Shown one piece after another: positions 1-64,000 of a DNA stretch of 64,000 nt. The notes under the pieces are model-generated. The model was not told the origin of the DNA, did not search any database, and saw nothing but the letters and a program-made list of their open reading frames with translations. Position numbers and translations under genes: made by a program. The stretch is from Verrucomicrobiota bacterium (GTDB lineage: Bacteria > Verrucomicrobiota > Verrucomicrobiia > Opitutales > UBA953): assembly GCA_015061905.1 (NCBI GenBank), contig SUVQ01000002.1, forward strand, positions 124,001 to 188,000. The letters are read 5' to 3'. Within the stretch, counting starts at the first letter, position 1; each line of letters starts with the position of its first letter.

Positions 1-1
1 G

Positions 2-202
2 GAATACGAAATCCGCGCACTCGGCGGGAACGCCGAAAGCTACAAGGCGTTTCGCAAAAATTATAATGCGAAAGAACCTTCCAAGCCGCCGAGCGGCGGT
101 GCCGCCGGGCGTTATTTGGAGAAAATTGCGCCTCTTGTCTCCGCCAAAAAGGATTATTCCAAGTGCTTCGAACTCTGGAAATCGGGAACGCCGAGAAAAT
201 AA
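2..202 (+). CDS. C-terminal end of an unidentified protein (5' truncated by window)
   Basis: Frame 2 is open from the window edge to a TAA at 200-202, giving the last 66 residues of a protein whose start lies outside. The tail is rich in Lys, Ser and Pro, with a short KPPSGGAAGRYLEKIAPLVS stretch. It shows no recognisable motif. It lies 47 bases upstream of the next gene in the same direction, so the two may be co-transcribed. I assign no function. Confidence 0.5.
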   Translation, partial: EYEIRALGGNAESYKAFRKNYNAKEPSKPPSGGAAGRYLEKIAPLVSAKKDYSKCFELWKSGTPRK

Positions 203-249
203 CGGCAAGCTTTCCGTTTTTCGAACCTTCAAAAAAGGAAAACATTTCT

Positions 250-1197
250 ATGCTCAAAAAATTTTTTATCGCCCTGCTCTGCCTGATTTTCGCGGGAACG
301 TCCGCATTCGCCGCGTTTTCCGCCAAAACGTTTGCCGCAGCGAAAAAGCGAAACCCCAAGGATGGAATCATCGTTTATTTTTACGGTCCCGACTGGGACG
401 TGCGCAGCACCAAGATGCTGAAAACGCTTTGGGAAAGCTCTGAAATAAAAAACGCCTGCGGAGACGCTTCCATGCTTTCCGTTCCCGTTTATCAGGAACC
501 GAACGAAAAACAGAAAAAAAATGCGAAAACAATTCGCGAAGGCATGAAAGTGCCTCACATTTTTTCTTATCCGGCAATCGTGATGTTCACGGAAGAAGGA
601 GAAAAATATTACATTTTGCAAGGCGACGAAATTTTTGAGAATAAAGCCGAAGTCGCCGAAACCATCAAGGCAAAACTCAAACTCTTTCGGGAACGCAAAG
701 CTATCTTGAAAAAAGCTGAACGCGCGAAAGGAATCGAAAAAGCGAAGCTTTACGGCGAAGCCCTTTTGGAAGGAATCGAGCCGCCCGCGAACGCGCTTAA
801 AACAATTAAAGCAAACGACCCGAAAGGCGAAACGCCCTACGCCAAACGCCTTGAGTTTGACGTTTTTAAGTTGCTGACGGATCAGACCTATAAAGATCCG
901 GACAAACCGGACAAAGTTTTAATTAAGCCGGACGCCGCCGTCGCCCTCGTCACCCAACTTGCCATAGAGGACGAAACCACCTATTTGCCCGAACAACGCC
1001 AAGAACTTCTCGCCTGTTGCGCCGCCTACCTGCGCCGCCTCGACAAAACCGATTCGCGCATCAAAACGCTTCACAAAAAAATCTTAGAAATCAATCCCGA
1101 TTCCGTTTGGGCGGATTTCGTGAAGGATTCGGAAGCGCAGTGGATGGGTGTTGAAAAGAAAAAAGATAAAAAAGAAAAACGCCGCAAAAGGAAGTGA
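250..1197 (+). CDS. Secreted thioredoxin-fold-like protein lacking active-site cysteines
   Basis: This is a 315-residue protein. The ATG at 250 was chosen because it is preceded by AAGGA at about 235-240 and opens a clear signal peptide (MLKKFFIALLCLIFAGTSAFA). The segment IIVYFYGPDWDVRSTKMLKTLW (about residues 38-60) resembles the start of thioredoxin-like domains, and VPHIFSYPAIVMFTEEG matches their cis-Pro region. The CxxC pair is absent, because GPDWDVR stands in its place. The C-terminal half is helical and charged and ends in a very Lys-rich tail. It is probably periplasmic. A redox role is unlikely without cysteines; the fold call is by eye only. Confidence 0.6.
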   Translation: MLKKFFIALLCLIFAGTSAFAAFSAKTFAAAKKRNPKDGIIVYFYGPDWDVRSTKMLKTLWESSEIKNACGDASMLSVPVYQEPNEKQKKNAKTIREGMKVPHIFSYPAIVMFTEEGEKYYILQGDEIFENKAEVAETIKAKLKLFRERKAILKKAERAKGIEKAKLYGEALLEGIEPPANALKTIKANDPKGETPYAKRLEFDVFKLLTDQTYKDPDKPDKVLIKPDAAVALVTQLAIEDETTYLPEQRQELLACCAAYLRRLDKTDSRIKTLHKKILEINPDSVWADFVKDSEAQWMGVEKKKDKKEKRRKRK

Positions 1198-1230
1198 GCG
1201 AAAACCGCGTCTCTTTCTAATCTTTAATCC

Positions 1231-2559
1231 TCAATCTTTCCGCTCTTTCTTCGCTTCGTTTTCGAGCATTTTTTGAGCGGGAACAAGTCCTTTTTCCGCG
1301 GCTTTTTTTGCCCATTCAAGAGCTTCTGCCCGATTGACGGGAACGCCCTCTCCGTTTATCAGACAAACCGCCAAATTGAATTGTGAAGCCGCATGTCCCT
1401 GCTCGGCGGCGAGGCGGAAAAGGCGCACCGCTTTCGCTTTGTCGGCGGGAACGCCGCGTCCGTAATAATAAATTCGGGCAAGTTCATATTGTCCGATGAC
1501 AGAGCCGGCTTCAGCGGCGGCATTCAGCCATTTAATGCTTTCGGCGATTTTCCCTGAATCTTTGCAAAGAACGCCGTAAAGAGCGCGAAAATAGGCTAAT
1601 TTTTTCGGATCAAATTCTTCCCCCGGCGCAGGCTCCACCGCAAGTTCCAGCCAATGCGTGCCCTGCGCGCGGTTTTTCCGCATTCCGCCGAAGCCTCCGA
1701 GATACGCGTCCACCAGAAAAGAGCGGGCAAACCAAAGACCTTGTTCCGCCGCCTTCGTTATGCGGAGAAGACCGCCTTCGATGTCTGCGGGAACGGCTTT
1801 CCCTTCTATCAGCAGGCAGCCGAGGACAAAATCCCCGTAAACGCTTCCTTGGAGAGAGGCTTTTTCCGCCCAGGAAACGGCTTCTTCCGCGTTCCCGTTC
1901 GTGTAGTAATAACTTGCCAAAAATCCCTGCGCGTCCGCGTCGTTTTGCTCTGCGGCAGAGCGCAAAAAAATCACGCCGAGAATTTCATTTTTCTCAAGAA
2001 TTCCCCCGCGAAGATACTCTTTTCCGAGCCAAAACTGCGCGGGCGCGAAACCTGCCGTCGCCGCATCTTTCATCAACTCTGCGGCGCGCGCAGGATCGGC
2101 TTCGCATACGCCCTCGACCCCGGAAAGTAAAAATAGAGCCAGCGACGCTTGCGCGGGTGCGATTCCCTGCTCTGCCGCCTTTTCCCACCAGAAAAAAGCC
2201 TTTTCCGGGCTTTGCTCAATCCCGGCGAATCCGCCCTGCACGTATAGCCCGCCAAGAGTTCCCTGAGCGGGAGCGCAACCGCCGTTTGCCGATTTTAAAA
2301 GCCACACGAAGGCTTCTTCGGGATTATTCAAAACAGTCGCGCAATAAAAGTAGAGTCGATACTGAGCTACGGGATCGCCGGCTTGAGCCTTTTGCAAATC
2401 TTTTTCGAAATCGTAATTCGGCGTTCCCGGAGCGGCGAACTCGGACTGCTCCGGAGAAAAATCCGCAGGTTCCGCCTCTTGGGCGAAAAGAGGCGCGACG
2501 CACACGCCAAGCGCAAGGAACGAGGTTACTTTTTTAAAAAAACCGAAATTTTGCTTCAT
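1231..2559 (-). CDS. Secreted Sel1-repeat (TPR-like) protein
   Basis: This 442-residue protein starts with a signal peptide ending near the Ala-Gln after APLFA. The rest is a chain of about ten Sel1-like repeats of roughly 36 residues, with the typical A..G...AQ..L...Y..G.GV...  EKA..W...AAEQG pattern. Clear examples are EKAFFWWEKAAEQGIAPAQ and AKAVRLFRLAAEQGHAASQ. Sel1 repeats form alpha-solenoids that bind protein partners and are common in exported adaptor proteins. It converges on the preceding gene (33 bases apart). The partner cannot be told from the sequence. Confidence 0.85.
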   Translation of the reverse strand: MKQNFGFFKKVTSFLALGVCVAPLFAQEAEPADFSPEQSEFAAPGTPNYDFEKDLQKAQAGDPVAQYRLYFYCATVLNNPEEAFVWLLKSANGGCAPAQGTLGGLYVQGGFAGIEQSPEKAFFWWEKAAEQGIAPAQASLALFLLSGVEGVCEADPARAAELMKDAATAGFAPAQFWLGKEYLRGGILEKNEILGVIFLRSAAEQNDADAQGFLASYYYTNGNAEEAVSWAEKASLQGSVYGDFVLGCLLIEGKAVPADIEGGLLRITKAAEQGLWFARSFLVDAYLGGFGGMRKNRAQGTHWLELAVEPAPGEEFDPKKLAYFRALYGVLCKDSGKIAESIKWLNAAAEAGSVIGQYELARIYYYGRGVPADKAKAVRLFRLAAEQGHAASQFNLAVCLINGEGVPVNRAEALEWAKKAAEKGLVPAQKMLENEAKKERKD

Positions 2560-2666
2560 AAAGCGTATAAAAATACGAGAAATTCCGCATTCGACGCAAA
2601 ATCGAAATTTGTTCGCGGGTTGTAAAAAATCCGCGAGCGCGATAGAATGCGCCTTTTGCCTTTGAA

Positions 2667-4118: not shown

Positions 4119-4845
4119 AATCGTTTTCGAAATAAAAAATTTGGTTAAACGCTTCGATAATTTTACGGCGGTCGACAGTGTTTCCGCGACGATTCGCCGC
4201 GGGGAAGTCGTTTTCATTGTCGGGCCGTCCGGCTCCGGAAAAAGCACCTTCCTGCGATGCCTGAATCTGCTCGAAACGCCGAGCTCCGGAGAAATTTTGT
4301 TCAAAGGAAAGGAAGTCGTTCACGCCAAGCGCGACATCAATCTCTTCCGGCAACAAGTCGGAATGGTCTTCCAGCACTTCAATCTCTTTCCGCACCTTTC
4401 GATTCTGAAAAACATAACGCTCGCGCCCGTAAAAACGGGGCGTTTCACAGCAAAGCAAGCCGCCGAACGCGCCGACACACTGCTCAATCGCATCGGGCTT
4501 TCCGCCAAGCGCGATGCGTTCCCGCCGCAACTTTCCGGCGGGCAAAAACAGCGCATCGCCATCGCTCGCGCACTCGCAATGAATCCGGACGTTTTGCTTT
4601 TCGACGAACCGACATCGGCACTTGACCCAGAAATGGTCGGCGAAGTGCTCGCGCTCATGAAAGACCTCGCGCAAGACGGCATGACAATGGTCGTCGTTAC
4701 TCACGAAATCGGCTTCGCGGCGGAAGTCGCCGACCGCATTATTTTCATGGACCACGGAAAAATCATCGAAACGGGAACGCCGGAAACAGTGATACGCAAC
4801 TCGAAAAATCCCCGCGTTCGGGAATTTTTCTCAAAAGTTCTTTAA
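4111..4845 (+). CDS. Amino-acid ABC transporter ATP-binding protein (GlnQ/ArtP type)
   Basis: This 244-residue cytoplasmic ATPase has Walker [10 protein letters not shown] (about residue 37), signature LSGGQKQR, Walker [15 protein letters not shown] and the switch His in [10 protein letters not shown]. The spacing and the DPEMVGEVL motif are those of polar amino-acid transporters. The gene starts within the last 8 bases of the permease gene and would power that transporter. The pair forms a complete importer in two polypeptides. An inverted-repeat terminator follows 28 bases downstream. Confidence 0.95.
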
Positions 4846-4872
4846 AAACAAACGCAGTTTCAACCCGCACAA

Positions 4873-4913
4873 AAAAACGTTCCCGCCGGAAATCCGACGG
4901 GAACGTTTTTTTT
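4873..4913. terminator. Bidirectional terminator built from an inverted CGTTCCCG pair
   Basis: AAAACGTTCCCGCCGG is followed by the loop AAAT and then CCGACGGGAACGTTTT, with one mismatch. A-run on one side and T-run on the other make it usable on both strands. It lies between the convergent ABC ATPase gene and mdh. The stem contains one GGGAACG word on each strand. Confidence 0.9.
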
Positions 4914-4934
4914 AAGCTTTCAGCTTTTTGCCGA

Positions 4935-5933: not shown

Positions 5934-6024
5934 AATTTTTGTGTGTTGAATAAGGTTAGAAATGTTCTTCCAAGCATGATGCGGGAACGCAAAAAAATCA
6001 ACGCGAAGTTTTTTGAAAAAAAAA

Positions 6025-6085
6025 TGTAATGATTACAATTTTTTACTTGCAAAAACCAAAACATCAATTATTGTAATGATTACAA
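6025..6085 (+). promoter_or_regulatory. Two PerR/Fur-like operators with embedded dps promoter
   Basis: The perfect 15-base palindrome TTGTAATGATTACAA lies at 6071-6085, and a near copy centred on TGTAATGATTACA lies at 6025-6037, 47 bases away centre to centre. The shape matches the PerR box (TTATAATNATTATAA) of the Fur family. A possible -35 TTGCAA (6047-6052) and -10 TATTGT (6069-6074) put the second site over the -10, so binding would repress dps. Known PerR targets include Dps/MrgA. The regulator itself is not in the window. Confidence 0.75.
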
Positions 6086-6136
6086 AATCAAACAAATCTT
6101 TAAAACTAAACAACAAAACAGAAAGAAAACAAAATA

Positions 6137-6648: not shown

Positions 6649-6686
6649 AAAAACGTTCCCGCATCGAAAACAGCGGGAACGTTTTT
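6649..6686 (+). terminator. Terminator after dps, inverted CGTTCCCG pair
   Basis: The perfect 14-base arms AAAAACGTTCCCGC and GCGGGAACGTTTTT enclose a 10-base loop and end in a T-run. This is another hairpin made of one GGGAACG word per strand. It lies 23 bases after the dps stop. Confidence 0.92.
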
Positions 6687-8337: not shown

Positions 8338-8360
8338 AACTTACGGATTAAAGACAAGAA

Positions 8361-8399
8361 AAAGCGTTCCCGCGATTCATCTGCGGGAACGCTTTTTTT
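8361..8399. terminator. Bidirectional terminator between gpmI and the LptF/G gene
   Basis: The arms AAAGCGTTCCCGC (8361-8373) and GCGGGAACGCTTT (8383-8395) are perfect over 13 bases, with a T-run following on the plus strand and A-rich sequence before. It separates two convergent genes. It again consists of a GGGAACG word on each strand. Confidence 0.92.
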
Positions 8400-11054: not shown

Positions 11055-11088
11055 CGGCGGGAACGCAGTCGTTTTTGCGTTCCCGCCG
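11055..11088. terminator. Perfect inverted repeat between convergent pyrC and ruvX
   Basis: The arms CGGCGGGAACGCA (11055-11067) and TGCGTTCCCGCCG (11076-11088) are perfect over 13 bases with an 8-base loop. There is no T-run after the stem, so it may be an RNA 3'-end stabiliser or a weak terminator. It is a GGGAACG inverted pair. Confidence 0.75.
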
Positions 11089-11551: not shown

Positions 11552-11590
11552 CAAAAAAAAACGGCGGGAACGCATTCTGACGTTCCCGCT
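11552..11590 (-). terminator. Minus-strand terminator after the prepilin-like cluster
   Basis: On the minus strand AGCGGGAACG, an 8-base loop and CGTTCCCGCC are followed by a run of nine T. It lies 6 bases after the stop of the last prepilin-like gene and before ruvX. It is built from a GGGAACG inverted pair. Confidence 0.88.
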
Positions 11591-11595: not shown

Positions 11596-12627
11596 TTAGC
11601 GCCCGCCGAACATGGGGCACGATCGCGAGAACGTTGCTCCGTGTTCAAGAAGGATTTCGTTAAATCTTTCCGTTTCGATTTCTCCCGAGCCGCGTTGCTC
11701 CTGCAGGCCCTGCAAAAGCTCTTTTCCTTCCGGGCTGAGCACCGTAACGGAAACATCCATCGAGCGTAGCGCGCCAAGGGTTTTGGAACCGAAATTTTCG
11801 TCAAAAACAACGGAACCCGCGCTTGCGACAAGGGATTTGTCAAATGTTACAATTGTGGTGTCCGGGTAAACGTCGCGCAATTTTTGGACAATTTTGGAAT
11901 TGTTGACGACGGCGATTTTCGTTTTTCCGTCGGTAAAATCGTCAAACCAAAAGAACACGAAAAAATCCACGATCCCGTCGACAAGAAAATTTTGCATTTC
12001 CGAGCGCCATGCGGAGGCGTTGTATTTTTTCCCGTCGGAAGGATCCTCAATTTGCTCGCCGCCCTTCCAAAATTTAGAAGGGATTCCGGAAGCTTCCGAT
12101 TCGCCCTTTTGCCCGATAATATACGGGATTGCGTATTGAAAGGTGTCTTTCGCATTCAGAACGGCTCTGTAAAATCCGTAGACGAGGTTACCCGCGTTGG
12201 ACGAAGTTTTAGAACCGAACGGAGACTTATGCTCAATTTTGTAAGCAACGGCGCACAAATCGCCCTGCAACAATTCCTTGGAACCGCGTTCCCGCCTCAC
12301 TCTATCCTGAGGGCGCGAGAAAAACATAAATTCCGGCACCGAGTATTTTTCAAGGTTGGAAACTTCGGATTCGTAGCGCACTTCGAACCAATAGTTTCCG
12401 TCATCGGGCATCGACGCCGAAAGCAAATCCTCCTGAACGGGATCGAGCACCATACTCGAATCCGCGTTGGTGGAAAGTGTAGAAATCGTCTTATCGTAAG
12501 CGCGCAACATATTGATGGCGATATTCGTCACGAACATCACGAGAATAATCATGATCGCCGTCGCCGCCATCAACTCCACCAGCGTAAAGCCTCGGCGAAA
12601 AGTTTTTTTTCCGTTTTTTTTCATCAT
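11596..12627 (-). CDS. Prepilin-like protein, GspJ-type (type II secretion / pilus-like)
   Basis: This 343-residue protein has the class III signal RRGFTLVELMAATAIMIILVMFV, which prepilin peptidase would cut after Gly, leaving a methylated Phe and a membrane helix. Size and position, last of four co-directional prepilin-like genes, fit the minor pseudopilin GspJ. Verrucomicrobia also carry 'Verru_Chthon cassette' prepilin clusters, which I cannot exclude. Two Met codons (12627, 12624) are possible starts. The rest of the protein has no motif I recognise. Confidence 0.75.
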   Translation of the reverse strand: MMKKNGKKTFRRGFTLVELMAATAIMIILVMFVTNIAINMLRAYDKTISTLSTNADSSMVLDPVQEDLLSASMPDDGNYWFEVRYESEVSNLEKYSVPEFMFFSRPQDRVRRERGSKELLQGDLCAVAYKIEHKSPFGSKTSSNAGNLVYGFYRAVLNAKDTFQYAIPYIIGQKGESEASGIPSKFWKGGEQIEDPSDGKKYNASAWRSEMQNFLVDGIVDFFVFFWFDDFTDGKTKIAVVNNSKIVQKLRDVYPDTTIVTFDKSLVASAGSVVFDENFGSKTLGALRSMDVSVTVLSPEGKELLQGLQEQRGSGEIETERFNEILLEHGATFSRSCPMFGGR

Positions 12628-12654: not shown

Positions 12655-13359
12655 TTAGCGTGAAACCACAAGAAATTGTGTCAGCACCGGAATTTGTTCT
12701 TCGGACTCCGCGCTACCCGGCGAATACGGATAAATGTCCACCGTCAGCGGCAAATACGGGAGCGCATAGCGGTCAACATTCGCCGGAAGAGAATTTCCGA
12801 CCGCATACTGCGTCGGCAAAACTTCCCCTTTCGCGTCCATCTCGACATAGCGCCCTTCCAGTTGCGGCGACAAATAAACCCGCATAAAATACGCCGGACC
12901 TTCTGAATTCAGATCCGTCAATTCCGCCTGCGTCGGCGTGCCGGAAGCGTTTTCGCATTTGATAATTTGAAGAACATTTTGCGGCGCGGAATCGTCCGTC
13001 GGGTTCAGTCGGCGGGAAATGCACACGAGGAAAAGCGCGTCGTTCCAGTTTTTTCCGGTTTTTCCCTGAAGCCAATCGTAAACGTAATCAAACGAGGGCT
13101 TTGTCATCTGGTCGGACTTCACAAAAGCGTTCCCGTCCGGCAAAACAACCGCATCGACGGAAGCCAACGCACGATCCAAGCAGGAATAAACGCCGAGTGC
13201 CTGCCGCGTCAGCACATTTTTGCTGACGGTTTCAAACGTCGCATTCATCAGCCCCATCACGGAAAGCATCGCGATTCCCAAAACGGCGAGCGCAAGTAAA
13301 ACTTCGACCAAGCTGAACCCTTTTTTGCGGGAACGCAGTTTATTTTTTAAAATGTTCAT
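12655..13359 (-). CDS. Prepilin-like protein, GspI-type
   Basis: This 234-residue protein starts at the ATG at 13359, which places the prepilin motif KKGFSLVEVLLALAVLGIAMLSVM at residues 13-36 and avoids overlap with the gene upstream; the frame is open further upstream but through the neighbour's 3' end. The conserved Glu at +5 is present. It lies 27 bases before the GspJ-like gene, suggesting one operon. It would be a minor subunit initiating assembly of a pseudopilus or pilus. Confidence 0.75.
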   Translation of the reverse strand: MNILKNKLRSRKKGFSLVEVLLALAVLGIAMLSVMGLMNATFETVSKNVLTRQALGVYSCLDRALASVDAVVLPDGNAFVKSDQMTKPSFDYVYDWLQGKTGKNWNDALFLVCISRRLNPTDDSAPQNVLQIIKCENASGTPTQAELTDLNSEGPAYFMRVYLSPQLEGRYVEMDAKGEVLPTQYAVGNSLPANVDRYALPYLPLTVDIYPYSPGSAESEEQIPVLTQFLVVSR

Positions 13360-13402
13360 GTTTTTTACGGTAAAAATCAAAATACGCAATTCTGAGAGCT
13401 CG

Positions 13403-14128
13403 TTATTCCTCCGTTGCCGCCAAAGCTTCCTCATCATCTCGCGTGAACGAAATTGCACCGCTACGATGAACAACAAAGCCGGAAACGAAGGGATCTTTTC
13501 CGAAATCCACGTCTCCGTTCGACGGGTCAATTTGTCCTTCCGCGAGCATCACGACCGCTTTCGTCATATAGGTTTGCCCGTTAGAATCGAACAAATAAAG
13601 ATACCAACTTTTTTTTCCTTCGCCGAATTTTTGTCCCTTGACTCGAACGTCCGGATCAATTCGCACTTCGGAACTGCCTTCAAGAAGCTGGTTCTCGCTC
13701 CTCGTCCGCACGCCGGCGGCATTCGGCGGCACAAAGTAAACGCCCTGAGGGAGCGTTACGCCTTCCCCGGCGGCATACCAGTAATAATCGGCAATATTCG
13801 TTTTATCCGCATTGTCGGTTCCGCCGACAATCGGCTGAACGAAACGCAAATGGCGGTCTAAATCATCTGGCTCGTTGAGAATAAGCACGCCCGCGCGAAT
13901 GTTGAAGCGTTCGTTCACGGCGGGATCGCGGTCCGGATTGCCGCCAAGCAACGCCTTGCTCTGCGCCACGCGAAATTCCGACGAAATAATCCGCCGGGCA
14001 TCTTCCAAGCCGCGCGGATTTCCCGGACGCAAGCCGACGATAACCGAAGCGACGATTCCGATGATGGCAATCACCACTAAAATTTCAACCAGCGTAAAAC
14101 CGCGTTTTCCGGAAACCCTGCGCAACAT
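13403..14128 (-). CDS. Prepilin-like protein, GspH-type
   Basis: This 241-residue protein has the class III leader KRGFTLVEILVVIAIIGIVASVIVG at residues 8-32. The mature part begins LRPGNPRGLEDARRIISSEFRVAQSKALL, the pattern of GspH/FimT-like minor pilins, in which a helix continues into a small globular domain. The C-terminus is acidic (EEALAATEE). It lies second in the cluster, after the GspG-like gene, and 43 bases before the next. Assignment to a particular pilin class is by position and helix pattern only. Confidence 0.75.
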   Translation of the reverse strand: MLRRVSGKRGFTLVEILVVIAIIGIVASVIVGLRPGNPRGLEDARRIISSEFRVAQSKALLGGNPDRDPAVNERFNIRAGVLILNEPDDLDRHLRFVQPIVGGTDNADKTNIADYYWYAAGEGVTLPQGVYFVPPNAAGVRTRSENQLLEGSSEVRIDPDVRVKGQKFGEGKKSWYLYLFDSNGQTYMTKAVVMLAEGQIDPSNGDVDFGKDPFVSGFVVHRSGAISFTRDDEEALAATEE

Positions 14129-14170: not shown

Positions 14171-14188
14171 CGTTCCCGTGCGGGAACG
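14171..14188. repeat. Palindromic GGGAACG pair between prepilin-like genes
   Basis: CGTTCCCG, a 2-base centre and CGGGAACG make an 18-base palindrome just after the stop of the GspG-like gene. It could act as a partial terminator or mRNA stabiliser that raises output of the first, major subunit over the minor ones. Confidence 0.7.
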
Positions 14189-14192: not shown

Positions 14193-14804
14193 TTAACGCC
14201 AGCTGTAAACGGACTCGTAGTCCTCGCCGTCTTTTTCGGATGTGAAAATGATAACGCGCCCGAGCATGCCTTTTTCGTTGCTTTCATCCTCCGTCGCATC
14301 GCTCGGCAGGTATTGCTGGGGAATTTCGACACGTCCGTTCCCGGTCGTATCCATCACGATATGAATATTGTTGTTCCCGAAACCGTCAACAAGCTTTCCG
14401 AACTCCACTTCCCCGCTCGCCTGCGTAAAATCTTCGCCGGAAAATTCGCAAAACGTCGTTGCCTTGCGGTTGTATTTCGTGCGCTCGGATCCGGTCAGCT
14501 TGTCCCCGGTTTCCGGGTCTTTTCCGTAAAGGGATTTTACAAACGCCTCGCTGTTGGAGCCGTTCGCGAGGTTGAAGTGCGCATCGGAGCCGGAAGGCGT
14601 ATTCTGCCCGAGCGTCGGATAAAATCCGTAGGTCATTTTGTATTGTTCGACCGCCGTTACCCATTCGTTAAAGCGGGCTTTTGACTTTGTCTTCGTCAGC
14701 GCGTCTTTAGCGCCGCCCGCAACCGGAATCATAATCGCGGCAAGCAAGCCGATGATGGCGATAACGACGAGAATTTCAATGAGTGTAAAACCGCGTTTTT
14801 TCAT
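14193..14804 (-). CDS. Prepilin-like protein, GspG-type major pseudopilin candidate
   Basis: This 203-residue protein begins MKKRGFTLIEILVVIAIIGLL, a textbook class III signal with Gly at -1, Phe at +1 and Glu at +5. The helix continues to FNEWVTAVEQYKMTYGFYPTLGQ, as in GspG. It is first of four prepilin-like genes on the minus strand, which fits the major subunit. A GspG-like C-terminal calcium site is not obvious. The cluster lacks the secretion ATPase and secretin, which must lie elsewhere. The prepilin peptidase is about 10 kb away at 24283-25140. Confidence 0.8.
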   Translation of the reverse strand: MKKRGFTLIEILVVIAIIGLLAAIMIPVAGGAKDALTKTKSKARFNEWVTAVEQYKMTYGFYPTLGQNTPSGSDAHFNLANGSNSEAFVKSLYGKDPETGDKLTGSERTKYNRKATTFCEFSGEDFTQASGEVEFGKLVDGFGNNNIHIVMDTTGNGRVEIPQQYLPSDATEDESNEKGMLGRVIIFTSEKDGEDYESVYSWR

Positions 14805-34617: not shown

Positions 34618-34655
34618 AAAAAAAACGTTCCCGCGACCGAAGCCACGGGAACGCT
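34618..34655 (-). terminator. Minus-strand terminator after the PEP-CTERM gene
   Basis: On the minus strand AGCGTTCCCG, a 12-base spacer and CGGGAACGT are followed by a T-run. It serves the PEP-CTERM gene whose stop is at 34683. The stem is again a GGGAACG inverted pair. Confidence 0.85.
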
Positions 34656-35655: not shown

Positions 35656-38190
35656 ATGAACGTAATAAAACGCACGGGAACGACGGAGGCCTACGACGGC
35701 AGAAAAATTATCAACGCCATGGCAAAAGCGTTCGGAAGCACCGGGAACGCCGTCAGCCGGGAAACTTTGCAAAAGCTTCTCGGAATTATCGAAAAGAAGC
35801 TGGAAGCGGAAACGCCGAAGACCGTCGAAAAAATCCAGGATTTGGTGGAACAGACTTTGATGGAGGCGGGCTTTTTTGAAGAGGGGAAGCGCTACATTCT
35901 GTTTCGTCAAAAACGCAATGAGTTTCGCCGTTTGCGGGCGGATATTTGCGAGCTGATTGTGCACGGCGATTCCGCCCAGCGGGAACGCTTAGATAAGGTT
36001 TTTTCGGGCATTCAAAAAGATTATTCCGACGATGTTTATTCCCTTTCCATTCTGAAAGCGAAGCTGATGTCTTTTCTGAAAGACGGAATGACGAGGCAGG
36101 AACAGCTTTCCACGCTTGTTCGCGCGTCCTCGGAGCTGGCGAGCCCGGAAGGTCCGAAGTGGGAATTTATTGCCGCGCGGCTTCTGAATTTTTCTTTTCG
36201 GGAAACGCTTTCCGCCAAAATCGAAGAGCTCAAACTCGGGAATCTGTTTGAAAAAATCGAATACCTCACGGAAGAAGGCTTATACGGAAGCTACATTTTG
36301 CGGGCGTATTCCAAGGAAGAAATTCTCGAAGCGGAGCGCTTTATCGTTCCCGAGCGCGACCATCTGTTTACTTTTTCCGGACTCGATCTTTTGCTGAAGC
36401 GTTACGTTATCCGCACGCGCAAGCACGTTCCCGTCGAAACGCCGCAGGAAATGTTCCTCGGGATTGCGCTTCATCTTGCGATGAACGAAAAAGCGAACCG
36501 GATGGAATGGGTGCGACGCTTTTACGACATTCTCTCCCGCATGGAAGTAACGATGGCGACGCCGACACTCGCCAATGCGCGCAAGCCGTATCACCAACTT
36601 TCGTCCTGTTTTATTGACACCGTTCCCGACAGCCTCAACGGGATTTATCGCTCGTTGGACAACTTTGCGAAAGTTTCCAAATTCGGCGGCGGCATGGGGC
36701 TTTATTTCGGCAAAGTGCGCTCTATCGGCTCCTCGATTCGCGGATTCGAAGGCGTCGCCGGCGGCGTGATTCGCTGGATTCGTTTGGTAAACGATACCGC
36801 CGTTGCCGTAGACCAGCTCGGCGTGCGCACGGGAGCCGTTGCCGTTTACCTCGATGTCTGGCACAAGGACTTGCTTGAATTTCTCGCGCTACGAACCAAT
36901 AACGGAGACGAGCGCATGAAGGCGCACGACGTCTTCCCGGGCGTTTGCTATCCGGATCTTTTCTGGAAAATGGCAAAAGAAAATCTCAATCAGGACTGGT
37001 ATCTGATGTGCCCGCACGACATTCGCACCGTGAAAGGCTACAACCTCGAAGATTTTTGGGGCGAAGAATGGGAAAAACGCTATTGGGACTGCGTGCACGA
37101 CAACCGCATTGCGAAGCGCGCCGTTGCGATTAAAGATGTCGTCCGGCTTATTCTGAAATCCGCCGTCGAAACGGGAACGCCCTTTGCGTTTAACCGCGAC
37201 ACGGTCAACCGCGCGAATCCCAACCCGCACGCCGGAATGATTTATTGCTCCAACCTGTGCACGGAAATTGCCCAAAACATGAGCGCGATCAGCTCCGTTT
37301 CTACGGAAATCACAACGGAAGACGGAGAAACCGTTGTCGTGACCAAGACAAAGCCGGGCGATTTCGTCGTGTGCAACCTTGCTTCGCTGTGTTTGGGAAA
37401 TCTCCCGCTCGAAGACAAAGCCTATCTTTCCCGCGTCGTTCACACGGCGATGCGCGCACTCGACAACGTGATTGATTTGAATTTCTTCCCCCTGCCCTAC
37501 GCACAGCTGACAAGCCTCGCGTATCGCCCGGTCGGGCTCGGAGCAAGCGGCTGGCACCACGCGCTCGCCAAACGGAAAATCCGCTGGGAAAGCGACGAGC
37601 ACCTGGAATTTGCCGACAGTGTTTTCGAATGCATAAATTTTGCCGCCGTCGAAGCCTCCTGCAATACGGCGGAAGAGAAAGGAGCCTACTCGCTTTTTGA
37701 AGGTTCCGACTGGCAAACGGGAACGTATTTCGAAAAGCGTAATTACACGTCGGAAGCGTGGAAAAAACTCGCGCTCCGCGTGCAAAAACACGGCGTGCGC
37801 AACGGCTACATGCTCGCCATCGCGCCGACAAGCTCCACGAGCATCATTTCGGGAACGACTCCCGGAATCGATCCCGTTATGAAGCGTTGGTTTCTCGAAG
37901 AGAAAAAAGGCTACATGCTCACGCGCACCGCACCGGAACTTTCGCCGGGAACGTGGTGGTTTTACCAAAATGCCCACCAGATCGACCAAAGTTGGTCCGT
38001 TCGCGCCTGCGGGATTCGCCAACGCCACATCGACCAGGCTCAAAGCATAAATTTGTATATTACAAACGAATACAGCATGCGACGTGTTTTAGACTTATAC
38101 CTGCTGGCATGGGAAAGCGGCGTAAAAACCGTTTATTATGTCCGCAGCAAATCCCTTGAAGTCGAAGAATGCGAAAGCTGCTCCGCATAA
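35656..38190 (+). CDS. nrdA: Ribonucleoside-diphosphate reductase, alpha (catalytic) subunit, class I
   Basis: This 844-residue subunit reduces ribonucleotides for DNA synthesis. An ATP-cone regulatory domain occupies about residues 1-90 (VIKRTGTTEAYDGRKIINAM). Catalytic-site landmarks are SSCFIDTVP, the CSNLCTEI motif with the thiyl-radical Cys, VCNLASLCLG with the partner Cys, APTSSTSIISGTTPGIDP, and the C-terminal redox pair CESC. It lies 31 bases before nrdB. No NrdR boxes were found upstream by eye. Confidence 0.97.
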   Translation: MNVIKRTGTTEAYDGRKIINAMAKAFGSTGNAVSRETLQKLLGIIEKKLEAETPKTVEKIQDLVEQTLMEAGFFEEGKRYILFRQKRNEFRRLRADICELIVHGDSAQRERLDKVFSGIQKDYSDDVYSLSILKAKLMSFLKDGMTRQEQLSTLVRASSELASPEGPKWEFIAARLLNFSFRETLSAKIEELKLGNLFEKIEYLTEEGLYGSYILRAYSKEEILEAERFIVPERDHLFTFSGLDLLLKRYVIRTRKHVPVETPQEMFLGIALHLAMNEKANRMEWVRRFYDILSRMEVTMATPTLANARKPYHQLSSCFIDTVPDSLNGIYRSLDNFAKVSKFGGGMGLYFGKVRSIGSSIRGFEGVAGGVIRWIRLVNDTAVAVDQLGVRTGAVAVYLDVWHKDLLEFLALRTNNGDERMKAHDVFPGVCYPDLFWKMAKENLNQDWYLMCPHDIRTVKGYNLEDFWGEEWEKRYWDCVHDNRIAKRAVAIKDVVRLILKSAVETGTPFAFNRDTVNRANPNPHAGMIYCSNLCTEIAQNMSAISSVSTEITTEDGETVVVTKTKPGDFVVCNLASLCLGNLPLEDKAYLSRVVHTAMRALDNVIDLNFFPLPYAQLTSLAYRPVGLGASGWHHALAKRKIRWESDEHLEFADSVFECINFAAVEASCNTAEEKGAYSLFEGSDWQTGTYFEKRNYTSEAWKKLALRVQKHGVRNGYMLAIAPTSSTSIISGTTPGIDPVMKRWFLEEKKGYMLTRTAPELSPGTWWFYQNAHQIDQSWSVRACGIRQRHIDQAQSINLYITNEYSMRRVLDLYLLAWESGVKTVYYVRSKSLEVEECESCSA

Positions 38191-39316: not shown

Positions 39317-39791
39317 CATTTAAAAAGCGAAAGCAGGCGGGAACGCGCTCACCAAGCCCGGAAAGCATTTCCCGCAACGGAATCGTAACAAATTCGCGTT
39401 CCCGCCAACGCGGATGCGGAAGCGTCAAAAAAGCCGTATTCCGCACTTCATTTTCGAAAAAAATCAAATCCAAATCCAAGGTGCGCGGCGCATTCGGAAA
39501 AGGACGTTCCCGCCCGAATTTTTTCTCGATATCAAGCAATTCCGCCAAAAAATCCTCCGGAGAACGCGTTGCGGGAACGCCGACGAGAGCCGTCGCATTC
39601 AAAAAATCCGGCTGGTTCAAATAGCCGACCGGTTTTGTTTCGTAAAAAGAAGAACGCGCAAGAACAACGTTCCCGCGCGCCTCCAGCTCGGCAAGCGCGG
39701 CGTCGAGCGTTCCCGCACGATTGCCGAGATTTGCGCCCAGCGCGACCACCGCCGGGCGCAAGCTTCCAAAATTTAGCGACGAACCGTGCAT
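39294..39791 (-). CDS. folK: 2-amino-4-hydroxy-6-hydroxymethyldihydropteridine pyrophosphokinase
   Basis: This 165-residue folate-pathway enzyme transfers pyrophosphate from ATP to the pterin alcohol. Motifs are VVALGANLGNR, SSFYETKPVG, FLNATALV, and the metal/ATP-binding PRTLDLDLIFF with PHPRWREREFV. Its ATG lies 19 bases inside the end of pheT, so translation is coupled to pheT. The 3' end lies in the terminator shared with nrdB. Confidence 0.95.
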   Translation of the reverse strand: MHGSSLNFGSLRPAVVALGANLGNRAGTLDAALAELEARGNVVLARSSFYETKPVGYLNQPDFLNATALVGVPATRSPEDFLAELLDIEKKFGRERPFPNAPRTLDLDLIFFENEVRNTAFLTLPHPRWREREFVTIPLREMLSGLGERVPACFRFLNEKTPPLL

Positions 39792-42226
39792 TTCACGGCG
39801 CGCTCAATATCGAGCATGATTTTTTCAAAAACCTTCATCACTTCCGCATCCGTCAGCGTCTTTGTTTCCGAACGGAAAACGATTTCGAACGCGAGCGATT
39901 TTTTACCTTCGGGCAAGCCCGTTCCCGTGTAAACGTCGAAGCAGTTGACTTTTTCCACGTTAAATTGCTTTGCCGTCGCCTTCGTCGCCGTCGCCTTGAG
40001 GCGGTCCGCCACGTCTCCGGCGGGAACGGACGCATCGACGATGAGCGCAATATCCTTCGTTACCGGCGGGAACGAGGAGAACGGTTTGAAGCGCGGACGC
40101 TTCGGCGCGTTTTTAAATACGTCTTGCGTGAAAAGGATTTCTCCGGCGATAACGTTTTCGTTGATGTCCCAAGTTTGCTGAGCAAGCTTGACGTTGATCA
40201 GCCCGAGCGAAAGTTCCGCCGCGCGGGCGCGGTCGCTTCCGGCGGCAGCGTGTCCTTTTTGCCAAATCGGCGTCGCTTCCGCATCCATCGCGGAAAAGAG
40301 CAGGCGTTGCTCCGCGATCCCGGCGCGAGCGGCGAGCTCAAGGCAAAGTTTTTTCGCAAAATAAAAATCGATTTTTTCGCGGGAACGCCAAGTGCGCGCC
40401 ACCGGTTCGGCGAGCGCGACAAAGGCAACGGAAACCATTTCACGCAACGAACCGTCCTTTTGCGGGCGGAACACCGTGCCGATTTCAAAAAAGCGGCGCG
40501 GTTCGTTGTGCGCGGCAAGATTGAGCTTCATCGCGTCCAGCAAGCCCGGCAAAAGCGACGGGCGAATGTGGGACTGATCGCTCGTGAGCGGATTTGCCAG
40601 CGCGAGCGCGGCAGTCATTTTTTCTCCGAAGCATTTTTTGAGTTCAACGGAATCGCGCAAAGTGTAATGCACGCATTCTGCAAAACCCTGCCCCGTGAGC
40701 AAAGCTCCCGCCTTGCGGCGAAATTCCGCCGCGGGCGCATCGCTGTCCGGCGCCTTCGGCGCGGGAATTGCTTCGGACGGAATTGTATCCGTGCCGTAAA
40801 TACGCACAAACTCTTCAACGAGGTCGATCGGGCGATCCACTTCCGGGCGAAACGCGGGAACGAGCACTTTCCACGCGTTCCCGTTTTCGGAAACGGAAAA
40901 TCCGAGGCGGCGGAAAACGTCGAGAATTGCCGCATCGTCCACGGCGTAGCCGCAACGTTCCCGCACGTAATCGCCGGAAATTTCGATTTCGCGATCTCCG
41001 CGCGGAAACTCGCCGAGCGCGATCTGCGGACCGGAAATTTCGCCGCCGGCGATTTCGCAAATAAGTTGCGCGGCGCGCGCTCCCGCCTTGGCGACCATGG
41101 TCGGATCGACATCGCGCGTGAAACGCATTGAGCTGTCGGAAGAAAGCGCGAGCCTGCGCGAAGTTTTGCGGACATTTGCCGGATTAAACCATGCGGCTTC
41201 AAGCACGACGTCCGTCGTCGCGTCCGTCACGCCGGATTCTTCGCCGCCCATAACGCCTGCGACGACGAGCGGTTTTTCCGCGTCGGCGATCAGGCACATT
41301 TCGGGCGAAAGCTCGTAGGTTTTTCCGTCGAGCAATTTAATTTTTTCGCCTTCTGCCGCTTGGCGCACGCAAATCGCGTTCCCGCCGATTTTAGCCGCGT
41401 CAAACGCATGAAGCGGATTGCCGAGCTCCATCAGCACCCAGTTCGTGATGTCGACAACGTTGTTGATCGGGCGCAAGCCGACGGCGAGCAAATCGCGTTG
41501 CATCCATTCCGGAGAAGGCGCGATTTTCACTCCGCGAATCGAAAACGCATTGTAAAGCGCGCAGTTCGGCGAAGTGATTTCAAGTTTTTTCAAAAGGGAA
41601 TTTTCTGCGGGAACGCTACTGATCGGCGCAAGATTTTGCGGGAACGCCGGCAAATTCAGCGGTTTGTTAAAATACGCCGCGAGGTCGCGAGCCACGCCGA
41701 GAATGCTCAGGCAGTCGCCGCGATTTGCCGTAATCGAAATGTCAAAAACCGTGTCTGCGGGCGGGAAATGGTCGTTAATCGAAGTGCCAATCGGCAAATT
41801 GCGCTCCGTCAAAATAAGCAAACCGGCGTGATCTTCGCTGATGCCGAGTTCGCGCGCCGAGCACATCATTCCCTGAGAAACTTCGCCGCGCATTTTGGTT
41901 TCGTTGATGGCGAAGCCGCCCGGCATCACCGCGCCCGGAAGCGCGACGGGAACGATATCGCCCGCTTTAAAATTTTTGGCGCCGCAAACGATTTGGCGAA
42001 TCGTGCCGTCGCCGACATCGACTTGGCAAACGCTCAAGTGGTCGCTGTTCGTATGCGGAACGAAGGAAAGAATTTTTCCGATAACGATATTTTTGAGCGG
42101 CACTAAACCCGCCGAGGAAATTTCTTCGACTTCGAGCCCGATCATCGGCAAAACGTCCGCGATTTTTTCTGCGGGAACGTCGCTCAAATCCACATACTTA
42201 TTCAGCCATTGCAGGGAAACTTTCAT
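39773..42226 (-). CDS. pheT: Phenylalanyl-tRNA synthetase beta subunit
   Basis: This 817-residue subunit contains in order an EMAP-like tRNA-binding domain (about residues 40-150: HTNSDHLSVCQVDVGDG, SQGMMCSARELG), the B3/B4 editing region, the B5 domain and the C-terminal ferredoxin-fold anticodon-binding domain (FPPVTKDIALIVDASVPAGDV). It pairs with PheS to charge tRNA-Phe. PheS usually lies directly upstream, but dxr is there instead, so pheS must be elsewhere. The 3' end overlaps folK. Confidence 0.97.
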   Translation of the reverse strand: MKVSLQWLNKYVDLSDVPAEKIADVLPMIGLEVEEISSAGLVPLKNIVIGKILSFVPHTNSDHLSVCQVDVGDGTIRQIVCGAKNFKAGDIVPVALPGAVMPGGFAINETKMRGEVSQGMMCSARELGISEDHAGLLILTERNLPIGTSINDHFPPADTVFDISITANRGDCLSILGVARDLAAYFNKPLNLPAFPQNLAPISSVPAENSLLKKLEITSPNCALYNAFSIRGVKIAPSPEWMQRDLLAVGLRPINNVVDITNWVLMELGNPLHAFDAAKIGGNAICVRQAAEGEKIKLLDGKTYELSPEMCLIADAEKPLVVAGVMGGEESGVTDATTDVVLEAAWFNPANVRKTSRRLALSSDSSMRFTRDVDPTMVAKAGARAAQLICEIAGGEISGPQIALGEFPRGDREIEISGDYVRERCGYAVDDAAILDVFRRLGFSVSENGNAWKVLVPAFRPEVDRPIDLVEEFVRIYGTDTIPSEAIPAPKAPDSDAPAAEFRRKAGALLTGQGFAECVHYTLRDSVELKKCFGEKMTAALALANPLTSDQSHIRPSLLPGLLDAMKLNLAAHNEPRRFFEIGTVFRPQKDGSLREMVSVAFVALAEPVARTWRSREKIDFYFAKKLCLELAARAGIAEQRLLFSAMDAEATPIWQKGHAAAGSDRARAAELSLGLINVKLAQQTWDINENVIAGEILFTQDVFKNAPKRPRFKPFSSFPPVTKDIALIVDASVPAGDVADRLKATATKATAKQFNVEKVNCFDVYTGTGLPEGKKSLAFEIVFRSETKTLTDAEVMKVFEKIMLDIERAVKCTVRR

Positions 42227-63700: not shown

Positions 63701-64000
63701 TTCGTAAACAATTCCCTGTTTTAAAAGCTCACTGCGAACAGCATCAGCGTATTCCTTCCCCGCCAAACCAAGCCAAGCATTCAAATCAGTTAATTCTTTT
63801 TCCGTAAAAGCACGTCCCTCTTCAAACGCGACTGCGCCGAAAGAAAGAATTTTCGACGCGTCTTTCGCAAGCCCCACGTTGACAAAATTTCCGCTCGAAG
63901 TATCAACCATTTCCTCAAAGCGTGTCGCAAAACGAGAAAACCAATCCGAGTCCGCTTCCGGCAACCGGGTCTTTACAGCCTCAAGAACAGCCGAGCGGCG
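54719..64000 (-). CDS. Giant polyvalent phage-type protein, 5' end outside window
   Basis: The frame is open for more than 3,090 codons and has no stop before the window edge, so the start is missing. In residues counted from the TTG at 63964: a Gly/Ala-rich hydrophobic stretch at about 146-220; a GLHEVVWH zincin-like motif at about 715-725 (HExxxH, not canonical); PNGKPSNLNPRQW and WFGDWE at about 1215-1245; an ADP-ribosyltransferase-like module at about 1420-1610 (NGEPLVVYHGSKASF, GRGFYFTTDEEYA, QIKSATDNAGTFDASNPDIR); a nuclease-like stretch at about 1650-1730 (AYEHIWSEHKDEL); alanine-rich coiled-coil regions; and C-terminal hydrophobic helices. Such polyvalent proteins are delivered with phage or plasmid DNA to counter host defences. 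Exact domain names need a profile search. Confidence 0.85.
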   Translation of the reverse strand, partial: RRSAVLEAVKTRLPEADSDWFSRFATRFEEMVDTSSGNFVNVGLAKDASKILSFGAVAFEEGRAFTEKELTDLNAWLGLAGKEYADAVRSELLKQGIVYEPGKYHKLNDKEKLALTREYRKIGEETADVAQARSVVLSNYAKKFEDGNAVGDWTADNLPSITENLMWIGASIATYGWATPAMMARYGADSYAGTANAALAGGATALDAVSAGKFAGVGSAALEAIPVSRLLGVASRGFTRFTQGLFGESTERVVKSLSEVSNSDLADLFLPKTLWKKSAREVKSFAGTFASEMGTELSQSALEGGATQWAIDGDWQSGAVNSLWDSSFGKDGFDLAASVFAISLGGQAMARGVKWHDHRKAVEAAVRRSGASPESRAEAEQIFIAEAKNAYARKATLEVMAAIDNASDGRAFGGDGKLTADMQAFVHRAMIPTVDENGNATEVYDRAWNTKKKDAFLRSINGGKSVSSKMREALDLLDAASEVAGEQVKEAVDKFKAATDKQLNEGVEQLQGKEAEQDAFANATLPGNGGVDVNPATLSREHLGELVGRFLESSPKMGDADISKELRAVFMGEDAEGADENVIAALNGIAKRCTSAFEFLSFLDAYAAGCDANLKTRTNAKTRAARVLYYGFQHVGTLARPDTNYERFMRLAYFAGTQNRRSLGTLTDEQRGKMQTMLGKIFAGTQVQLGGIPAWASAEAQAAIARGEINGAYASGKVWIADDAFVGTGLHEVVWHATWAWAKQSAPELYKQMQSYVRNAPRWLREQIAQDYAGKSGVSFDEISDEIGAFMFENEFEGDFLNGLNKESRSWWDGLQKTFGKAFKKLRGNEKTGDAHDAVRELMKGFLDGEMKGDLRGGPVESEITDSARRYYAEAEGGAHFDTSAHSGKSLLKPHRTPYNSENMQMTETVLPDNQRVDVVGLTPINWERYSAAAAAMNRTGDIPDGKSPREVAERIEANNKVSVTGMLSEEIRKAADAWCETAATSARRALAGKMLAVIPEGNREVDLPDGRVVEITSNGIANILQHMPNVKSKFRDGALDFVLKLPEFFANAEEFYREFKGIRHGSFGGVVDFNGTPFYVSVTCTGEDSLRVKAVNSIKKASLNAWTETTASGESESVLKAAFKLGKKATDGMTARLPKAISAHSSVKAPATSTADVLKWILSNQDKTAADFRLFLRGWDDAEETRRKDDERWSRRRGFSRGDAEAQRIEAEAKANGTWLKAPNGKPSNLNPRQWVQVRTEAFKKWFGDWERLAKFTFVSEKTRDADAKTKLMKIAGKDLVNTQTGIVAQINSTQRDKLLSGRAKDKSVKNGFSFDQHNFAVSKVASLYENAVLLGEFEDDDGDANVKSVFRFFSPFYLDGHHVVAVLTVKNTTGNKLYSVELDEIKKLDGSVGRLESKSKRIPASSFGGSIGEVRDYVNTFFNVSKVVDENGEPLVVYHGSKASFNAFSHEFTMRNGAMLGRGFYFTTDEEYASGFGGNVFSVFLNLKNPLHPAKNEITKEDLKRVIRFIDPHGDTVADYAISSKGYPGKSWYENALNEAVEAIFSTRKNYSQTSDSDIIGELFSVWGQEDALRGIIEVLGYDGFIPVGTFSDDFRIVFLPEQIKSATDNAGTFDASNPDIRWSLANHFAKIGENEWTIPESVTAAVPELRGKIVCDDDAYEHIWSEHKDELAKVGASSAQEFVERTIENVVEVYRRRNGGFDLVARLRGESGSADKVLIYLKKSEAGDFYDVGNGHPIRNNTYKKEAPVWRANAYPSNDLMALGGPNRNFVGNATVSGGDVNPERHSRAYRAADTHEQELARMAYAVALASKMIQSGKENVRLPAWLKELPEWERIGAINRAFNLFRVAKARGLIKNSMSADAANTAAIEANRAVTERFVHAVAADAMANGVSVERMARGRIQDETERMARSRVDVPSSVSDATKALGVALQRAQGAKASMGKSAKTLHERAMAFPRVILQAAQSRFMPRDSSRETVIDAIIAEAEDAALPTEKLRELRRQVSTKEFAGTGDAANVLRANAADLLTEVEAAISVQNEMLVAGMNMVKDRAVGSRIEAESAGAQRSEKAALAGFEGEDPSMIARRVATSVLVSAWRNTARALGLRGVDYNADVEDGATNPAAVLKFIVLSAERRADDLDAQADAITEKLHSKTLSSEESREANEERNKLREEALLFRDVVAPAGTFTEVFKEGAEEFVKDMLKRGGGFSVANALSALRGAVTLRDALGKAYKLFMTASTREAEANIPYLSGRLRGLISSLPKLDERTDDDASYYSARFRVLANQLREVGNAWWEKSFEEVQAEIDRLESLENRDDHTTAKLQALQMVGGAKHMSAEMLDMAFWTILAERDTAFLEQVSDLRERRADVEQRATFFVEALKANPHAKPADKSTTQSVKENATSQNGLSLGDRLRGWIKNAKGELWEKASAFVDDFERRFSDAASEYDRLVIAQHDWQIRTMREIFGKAWQAKIAELSTVVVPELAKFDRTSRSGVKTDDGLTAMHALHLYMSARQKSFQAPLLHPAMFSEESEGALLSRKAYIKQAKDGGELETFLKTHKGGVLWKLKTAWSVRWKEILPQLNEAYRKVYGFDMYDPFGETDYYPLRLKSEAKAHASGITAKSGAIMLPVGRRFQSRTINVAELDANRKFAEVVFEQMENTLHTIAYAEVHRDAERFMGNAAISDVRNARVAYSDVKGFKDHLADILALPSQQGEASRMGRFVAGTSTVLALAGNLFTPIRQMSGGGTYAAESPFGVGATTAAMTYAVWGTLWGGQYMKDLLRVVRDPLFRARYEEAARFVEQEALRGGAGTGVPGATKRLFKKLKNASLYGVRFGDAVPIMTCGVGFYRMFYAQNLRKGMSDAQAHEKAMNDMIALTEKTQQTRRVMNKTRLQRDTGLSGQILGQFKSMNDQAFGNESRVLSDLASDLKSAKRWKRALKSVVAYHLLFGAFSDFVMQSVFIALSGDDDDESTFWEKLNLWELGAATVGGGLYGSTIAFVAFDLMNIEDVGRRIANWAFDAEMPGRRPAAVAASLPSVSILLNTGTHTAKAVSMLGDEEVEGKDAFVEFCKSFGGAKSIMRLVDKITEDSEEE

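What the first reader, a model, noticed from the sequence alone, without database searches (positions are those of the whole stretch)
1..64000. GGGAACG/CGTTCCC: a candidate undescribed genome signature motif
The word appears about 38 times in 1-10000 against roughly 1.2 expected, and it continues at high density through the window. It lies in coding and non-coding DNA, both strands, and different codon frames (for example Gly-Asn, Ala-Gly-Thr, Arg-Glu-Arg, Val-Pro, Arg-Ser-Arg), so it is selected or spread as DNA. Density is like HIP1 of cyanobacteria; unlike HIP1 it is not palindromic. Candidate roles are a DNA uptake sequence, chromosome-organising site, methylation or repair site, or a gene-conversion product. 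I know of no description of this motif, but I could not search.
Basis: partly seen in the sequence, partly recalled or inferred. Interest (0 to 1): 0.95.

Follow-up and report, generated by a model that had tools for sequence, protein, structure and literature searches.

The report
Genus-wide eight-letter self-DNA tag, CGGGAACG
Six of the eight genomes held for an uncultured gut-bacterial genus carry one eight-letter DNA word about once every 260 to 370 letters, and it is likely a tag by which these cells would recognise and take up DNA of their own kind, a device that the papers I saw describe only in two families of Proteobacteria.

Summary
The unit is the octamer CGGGAACG (often gCGGGAACGc). 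It occurs 235 times in the window and 6,550 times in the 2.08 Mb genome, against 85 for the reversed word. All six reading frames and both strands are used. A synonymous-codon shuffle predicts 130 copies where 1,252 are seen.

Among 273 genomes of the order, only the window's genus exceeds 0.2 copies/kb, in 8 of 8 genomes: six strongly, two weakly. A four-gene tree groups the two weak genomes inside the genus. Their copies look decayed, except that in one of them inverted pairs in terminator hairpins persist. In the rich species pairs compared, sites are conserved far above matched control words, and a probably acquired ribonucleotide reductase gene has gained 10 copies.

In the sampled genome 26 of 60 terminator-like hairpins contain the word, as DNA uptake sequences do in Neisseriaceae and Pasteurellaceae. 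Type IV pilus ATPases, minor pilins (a FimU-class one is in the window), ComEC and DprA are present. I read it as a probable DNA-uptake tag of a third, independent origin. No receptor, ComEA or lost gene was identified; uptake is untested. A methyltransferase-linked (HIP1-like) or chromosome-structuring role remains possible.

The parts
1..64000 (.). 235 dispersed copies of CGGGAACG / CGTTCCCG (+ strand 96, - strand 139), about one per 272 bp
4878..4905 (.). inverted motif pair in a terminator-like hairpin (A-tract, ACGTTCCCG...CGGGAACGT, T-tract)
6654..6681 (.). inverted motif pair, terminator-like hairpin with A and T tracts
8365..8391 (.). inverted motif pair, terminator-like hairpin with A and T tracts
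11058..11085 (.). intergenic inverted motif pair (opposite arrangement)
11565..11588 (.). intergenic inverted motif pair (opposite arrangement)
14171..14188 (.). intergenic inverted motif pair between two pilin genes
34626..34653 (.). inverted motif pair, hairpin with A-tract on one side
11596..12627 (-). minor pilin (N_methyl), 343 aa; likely PilW/GspJ-like (inferred from size and place only)
12655..13389 (-). minor pilin (N_methyl), 244 aa; likely PilV/GspI-like (inferred from size and place only)
13403..14128 (-). [not shown]
14193..14804 (-). minor pilin (N_methyl), 203 aa, likely GspG-like (inferred)
35656..38190 (+). ribonucleotide reductase large chain, 10 motifs; the five nearest spirochaete-labelled relatives have none in this gene
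39773..42226 (-). PheT, 12 motifs; orthologue alignment of 18 genomes used to trace gain and decay

Best explanation
CGGGAACG is a genome-wide, conserved DNA word of one Opitutales genus and is likely its DNA uptake sequence, the tag by which type IV pilus-dependent natural transformation would prefer DNA of its own kind. How it would work (inferred): a surface protein, possibly a minor pilin, binds the word in either orientation; tagged fragments are pulled in by PilT retraction and enter through ComEC; recombination replaces untagged or damaged copies with tagged ones. Mutation plus this uptake bias raises the word wherever protein coding allows, and inverted pairs are co-opted as transcription terminators. 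Shown here: abundance beyond codon expectation, site conservation, copies in an apparently acquired gene whose outside relatives have none, terminator-like pairing, and depletion with an excess of near-miss copies in one subclade. Inferred: the receptor, the uptake bias, and that loss of this bias caused the decay.
For: Density 3.1/kb in the genome; the highest DUS count reported by Frye et al. is 5,918 in 2.4 Mb (PMC3630211 passages). Non-palindromic; both strands nearly equal (3,233:3,317; leading:lagging 749:681). Overrepresentation falls with mismatch load: 30.4x, 1.66x, 1.03x, a decline also described for uptake sequences (PMC1939737 passages). Close intergenic pairs are inverted in 35 of 40 cases, against 45 of 93 for the other close pairs. 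26 of 60 terminator-like hairpins carry the word, 16 of 19 in G017, 11 of 25 in G012+G015, 0 of 18 in two other genera; DUS and USS do the same in up to 37% and 22% of terminators (PMC13020248 passages). Conservation: G012-G015 213/245 and 213/253 sites kept, against 561/1161 and 561/1185 for matched words; G000-G013 155/184 and 155/163, against 403/689 and 403/562; G000-G012 78/117 and 78/101, against 152/492 and 152/471. With sites chosen in G012/G015, G000 and G013 differ at 3.6% of positions inside and 7.4% outside. Decay in G014/G016: 0.65 and 0.29 copies/kb (rounded sizes), 2.4 and 4.7 excess near-misses per excess copy, against about 0.4 in G000 and G017; in G014 21 of 25 remaining intergenic copies sit in inverted pairs, against 75 of 201 in G000. 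Machinery in all 8 genomes: ComEC, PilB/PilT-type ATPases (domains of the G000 set), seven shared pilins, DprA; one window pilin is FimU-class.
Against: No uptake data, no culture. No ComEA recognised: the strong HHH_3 match in each genome of the genus lies in an ORF of 773-831 aa; the only others there are five weak ones below the family cut-off, one of them in a 186-aa frame of G011. No nuclease domain recognised in ComEC of G000. All seven pilins are acidic in the window's genome, and no pilin is specially diverged in G014/G016, which keep every competence-related gene tested; no gene lost with the word was found. Those genes also occur in genera without the word. Enrichment of one-mismatch forms is modest. 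Intragenic position looks roughly flat (counts only), unlike Pasteurellaceae uptake sequences (PMC2346458). In G016 only 1 of 4 intergenic copies is paired and 0 of 7 hairpins carry the word.
Confidence: 0.5

Rival explanations
1. HIP1-like: the word is made and kept by a DNA methyltransferase coupled to mismatch repair, which biases mutations towards the recognition sequence, so that abundance is a by-product of repair.
For: Same kind of genome saturation by an octamer; Elhai's model predicts such a ratchet (PMC4390886, abstract and section 3.4 part 1 of 2). Common near-miss forms include CpG transitions at the last two bases.
Against: The word is not a palindrome. Of the two methyltransferase families searched, PF00145 has no match in G011 and G015, and PF01555 genes are patchy: 1 to 4 matches per genome, in G014/G016 too; PF01555 genes were told apart only by length, place and score. 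Some sites in PheT differ from their relatives at several of the eight bases.
Confidence: 0.17
2. Chromosome-structuring or nucleoid-protein binding site: selection favours a coat of binding sites over the chromosome.
For: Present in each of the 21 sampled stretches of this genome tabulated, 1.5 to 3.85 per kb; position-specific strictness at bases 1, 2 and 5 looks like protein recognition.
Against: Spacing is random, not even (gap CV 0.95 to 1.34 in the six rich genomes); no leading/lagging polarity; no candidate protein.
Confidence: 0.13
3. Recombination or repair hotspot (Chi-like) recognised by a RecBCD or AddAB type enzyme.
For: Short, non-palindromic, overrepresented, lineage-specific.
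Against: Chi sites are expected to be strongly polar with replication (recalled); here leading:lagging is 749:681. Density is far above the Chi sites that I recall. AddAB/RecBCD were not searched.
Confidence: 0.07
4. Restriction target, repeat family or codon artefact.
Against: Flanks carry little information beyond one base on each side, so it is no repeat element; synonymous shuffling gives a tenth of the copies; a restriction target is expected to be avoided, not enriched (general knowledge).
Confidence: 0.02

Closest known systems
DNA uptake sequence (DUS) dialects of Neisseriaceae
   Same: Non-palindromic word, thousands of copies, both orientations, inverted pairs in terminators, lineage dialects; Frye et al. 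foresaw slow degeneration if specificity is lost (PMC3630211 passages)
   Different: Unrelated sequence and phylum; 8-bp core against 12 (PMC5031613 passages); higher density than their maximum of 5,918 in 2.4 Mb; no ComP-like basic pilin found; uptake untested
Uptake signal sequence (USS) of Pasteurellaceae
   Same: As above; its receptor is predicted to be the FimT/FimU-class pilin ComN/PpdA (PMC12616744 passages), and a FimU-class pilin lies in this window
   Different: Unrelated word; no clear bias to gene ends here, against PMC2346458 (part 1 of 3 read)
HIP1 of cyanobacteria
   Same: Octamer saturating genomes of a clade, low or absent in some members (PMC4390886 abstract)
   Different: Not palindromic; about three times denser than one per 1,000 nt; no consistent methyltransferase in two families; pairs up in terminator-like hairpins

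Membership tests
DNA uptake sequence (DUS/USS) | short word overrepresented by orders of magnitude in the genome, in coding and intergenic DNA, both orientations | tested here: met
   6,550 against 85 reversed; 1,252 against 130 after synonymous shuffle; coding and intergenic
DNA uptake sequence (DUS/USS) | intergenic inverted pairs in terminator stems | tested here: met
   35 of 40 close intergenic pairs inverted; 26 of 60 terminator-like hairpins contain it; termination itself not tested
DNA uptake sequence (DUS/USS) | overrepresentation declining with mismatch load | tested here: met
   30.4x, 1.66x, 1.03x; weaker at one mismatch than I recall for H. influenzae
DNA uptake sequence (DUS/USS) | type IV pilus, ComEC, DprA present | tested here: met
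   PilQ was not searched; the decayed genomes and other genera have these genes too
DNA uptake sequence (DUS/USS) | periplasmic receptor such as ComEA | tested here: inconclusive
   strong PF12836 matches only in ORFs of 773-831 aa in the genus; other receptors exist, such as ComH of H. pylori (PMC6877725, start of abstract in listing)
DNA uptake sequence (DUS/USS) | sequence-specific DNA-binding minor pilin | tested here: inconclusive
   seven pilins shared by all 8 genomes, all acidic in the window's genome; one is FimU-class; binding untested
DNA uptake sequence (DUS/USS) | DNA carrying the word is taken up preferentially | not testable with these tools
   needs a competent isolate
HIP1 / highly iterated palindromes | the word is a palindrome | tested here: not met
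   CGGGAACG is not its own reverse complement
HIP1 / highly iterated palindromes | cognate methyltransferase in genomes that carry the word | tested here: inconclusive
   PF01555 and PF00145 patchy; PF02384, PF07669, PF02086 not searched
Chi / KOPS-type polar sites | strong polarity with replication | tested here: not met
   749 leading: 681 lagging by local GC skew, 21 stretches
Interspersed repeat (REP, MITE) | homologous sequence beyond the core | tested here: not met
   in the window information drops to near background two bases outside the octamer; other species show a weak further C

The most novel reading that the evidence does not exclude
A third, independently evolved DNA uptake tag, the first outside Proteobacteria and denser than any reported: a genus of gut Verrucomicrobiota marks its whole chromosome about every 300 bases, terminators included, with its own receptor, and one subclade has dropped the system and is being erased clean, one of its members keeping the tag mainly in terminator stems.
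Probability: 0.48. Interest if true: 0.9.

Novelty: new variant of a known kind. Interest (0 to 1): 0.8.

Why it matters
A 2016 review describes uptake tags in two proteobacterial families (PMC5031613 passages). A third origin in another phylum would allow a real comparison of how such tags arise, how receptor and genome co-evolve, and how fast a tag erodes once its force is gone; here the intact, decaying and never-tagged relatives all sit in one family. If the mechanism turns out to be something else, it is still an unexplained force whose word occupies about 2.5% of a genome's bases (6,550 x 8 bp in 2.08 Mb) and reaches into amino-acid sequences.

Tried and rejected
Seven-mer as unit: replaced by the 8-mer. 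Chance, composition, codon usage: rejected. Repeat family: rejected. Polar site: rejected. Even spacing: not seen. A lost pilin, ComEC or DprA in the decaying clade: none; instead G014/G016 keep a further GspE-type ATPase and four pseudopilins that the rich six lack. Replacement dialect in G014 or G016: none recognised in about 80 kb each; G016 has clustered CCACCACCAACC repeats.

Enrichment outside the genus: by my count 11 of the 265 other genomes exceed the reversed-word control threefold or more (for example G178 133 against 14, G189 713 against 143). On samples of 15-80 kb G189, G118, G240 and G223 are at Markov expectation (2/1.6, 8/7.1, 2/1.2, 3/3.4); G178 and G208 show a weak excess (15/6.4, 10/3.3), one genus, not followed further; 31,972 of the 8-base windows counted in G178 (both strands) are masked as N. 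The other five genomes were not sampled.

Of those, 3 of at least 5 kb have 1 or more per kb with both strands used, and there most copies sit in local clusters, so no phage with the dispersed word was recognised. Foldseek alone gave no match at E <= 0.001 for the FimU-class pilin model; the second look by VIA-align did. ComP, FimT and ComN are not among the rows, which says nothing against them. Interspecies exchange between G000 and G014: three genes are 85-87% identical in DNA against 74% for PheT, not clearly more than gene conservation. Recalled resemblance of GGGAAC/CGTT to ECF sigma-factor promoters: dropped, since most copies are coding and spacing shows no peak. Gain versus loss between G000 and G013: of 39 differing sites 9 could be polarised, all losses (6 in G013, 3 in G000); 22 had no outgroup base and 8 were ambiguous. 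So no gain was polarised on that pair. Single-gene trees of PilB and PilT place G014, G016 and G017 differently with low support; the concatenation decides.

Full report
What is there. The word is CGGGAACG: 235 copies in 64 kb (96 on +, 139 on -), 10 to 22 expected by Markov models. Six of the 241 seven-mers lack the leading C. Before it G is preferred (about 60%), after it C (about 50%); further bases carry little in the window, and a weak C two bases before it shows in other species. In 475 kb of this genome (23%; plus the window) there are 1,485 copies: 1,283 in ORFs (3.0/kb), 201 between them (4.2/kb), 1 straddling. My ORF caller is a greedy longest-ORF method, so coding and intergenic labels are approximate.

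It is not a coding effect. Shuffling synonymous codons within each gene keeps protein and codon usage and gives 130 copies against 1,252 (334 ORFs, 30 shuffles). The word is read as Gly-Thr, Gly-Asn, Arg-Glu-Arg, Val-Pro, Phe-Pro and Arg-Ser-Arg.

Where it occurs. The window lies in an uncultured Opitutales bacterium; the closest named record by ribonucleotide reductase is a sheep-rectum MAG (98% protein identity), and a contig of Candidatus Spyradosoma merdigallinarum (63%) has 78 copies in 18 kb. Counts per genome: G000 6,550; G011 6,161; G015 5,434; G017 5,322; G012 5,274; G013 5,192; G014 1,362; G016 546. The 71 other genomes of the family have at most 375. In 273 genomes of the order (88 genera) the 265 outside the genus have at most 713 (in 4.2 Mb, 0.17/kb). 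Some of these exceed the reversed-word control several-fold, but four of six sampled lie at Markov expectation and two, of one genus, show a two- to threefold excess (see Tried and rejected). Genome sizes other than G000's are rounded by the tool.

History. PheT alone and PheT plus three pilus ATPases (2,341 columns) give ((G000,G013),(G012,G015),G011) against (G017,(G014,G016)); four alternative arrangements are rejected (AU p 0.0006 or less), though support for G014+G016 as sisters is 93/89 and single genes disagree. Both sides hold rich genomes, so the word was most likely abundant in the genus ancestor and is being lost in G014/G016. In PheT 5 of the 10 G017 sites are shared in place and orientation with the G000 side; one of the five is shared with G016 and an outgroup too, so protein constraint may explain that one. 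At these five, G014 is one base off at three and G016 at one (perfect at another); elsewhere they differ by two or three bases. Genome samples agree: excess one-mismatch copies per excess perfect copy are 0.41 (G000), 0.43 (G017), 2.4 (G014) and 4.7 (G016). Two separate gains remain possible but are less simple.

Maintenance. Between close species the sites are conserved far above composition-matched control words (80-86 words per pair; numbers in the evidence field). G011 and G017 were not in that test. In G014-G016 none of 3 and 6 sites is shared (49 control words: 25/152 and 25/151), a small sample. When sites are chosen in G012/G015, G000 and G013 differ at 23 of 632 positions inside and 163 of 2,212 outside the word. 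The nearest relatives of the ribonucleotide reductase large chain outside the genus are in contigs labelled spirochaete (74-80% protein identity). The gene has no copy in 4 of 4 that were aligned, nor in the fifth, partial one, whose single copy lies outside it; it has 10, 10, 5 and 5 copies in G000, G013, G012 and G015. The donor is inferred from labels of MAG contigs. Its neighbour nrdB has 0 copies in 1.1 kb, so gain is uneven.

Terminators. Of 40 close intergenic pairs (starts 32 bp apart or less) 35 are inverted, 27 of them as CGTTCCCG...CGGGAACG, often between an A-tract and a T-tract; the other 93 close pairs show no such bias (48 same-strand, 45 inverted). By a simple hairpin-plus-T-run scan, 26 of 60 hairpins in G000, 16 of 19 in G017, 11 of 25 in G012+G015 and 13 of 30 in G014 hold the word, against 0 of 7 in G016, 0 of 13 in G007 and 0 of 5 in G010. 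G014 has a fifth of the copies per kb but the same share of terminators: the stems seem to preserve them. Of G014's 25 intergenic copies 21 are in inverted pairs, against 75 of 201 in G000 (Fisher p = 1.6e-5). G016 does not show this (1 of 4), nor does the rich G011 sample (2 of 22).

Against this reading: no ComEA recognised, no basic pilin in the window's genome, no gene found that was lost with the word, no uptake data, and the same machinery in genera without the word. Methyltransferase families PF01555 and PF00145 do not follow the word either. I therefore put the uptake reading at one half.

In print: a whole-word search for the word and its forms found three papers, unrelated by title. 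Searches for uptake sequences with Verrucomicrobi (1 paper), Spyradosoma (1), uptake sequences since 2014 (12 of 16 listed) and overrepresented octamers (10 of 274 listed) showed no such report in their listings. Only open-licence papers are held. TerminatorNet, which scanned terminators of thousands of genomes, names Neisseriaceae and Pasteurellaceae for uptake sequences, and Verrucomicro and Opitut do not occur in its text.

Noticed in passing
window 35656-39265: nrdA-nrdB pair whose nearest relatives outside the genus are in contigs labelled Treponema/Spirochaetaceae; no nrdA homologue at E <= 1e-50 in G014, G016 and G017, only 33-37% identical ones in five of the eight genomes searched from other genera; nrdB has no copy of the word.
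   Followed up: partly
G014 (L204, L233) and G016 (L205, L236): A further GspE-type ATPase and four type II pseudopilins are kept in the two motif-poor genomes and missing from the six motif-rich ones.
   Followed up: partly
G016: L116-L118, L120: Clustered CCACCACCAACC / CCACTAACC repeats, in small groups and often in both orientations, perhaps a repeat element of its own.
   Followed up: no
G178 (L421-L424) and G208 (L425-L427): Weak two- to threefold excess of CGGGAACG in one genus of another family of the order.
   Followed up: partly
window 53395-54744: tRNA-Leu(caa) followed by a gene with a phage-integrase match, next to a 3,081-aa ORF with low motif density (1.95/kb): possible integrated island.
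   Followed up: no
window 16745-22858: 2,037-aa ORF with 38 copies of the word, 37 of them in sense orientation (6.2/kb).
   Followed up: no
window 34683-35429: Predicted PEP-CTERM protein without any copy of the word.
   Followed up: no
L166:11296-13146 and orthologues: ComEC evolves fast in this genus (32-36% identity of G000 to G014, G016, G017, against 73-77% for PheT).
   Followed up: no
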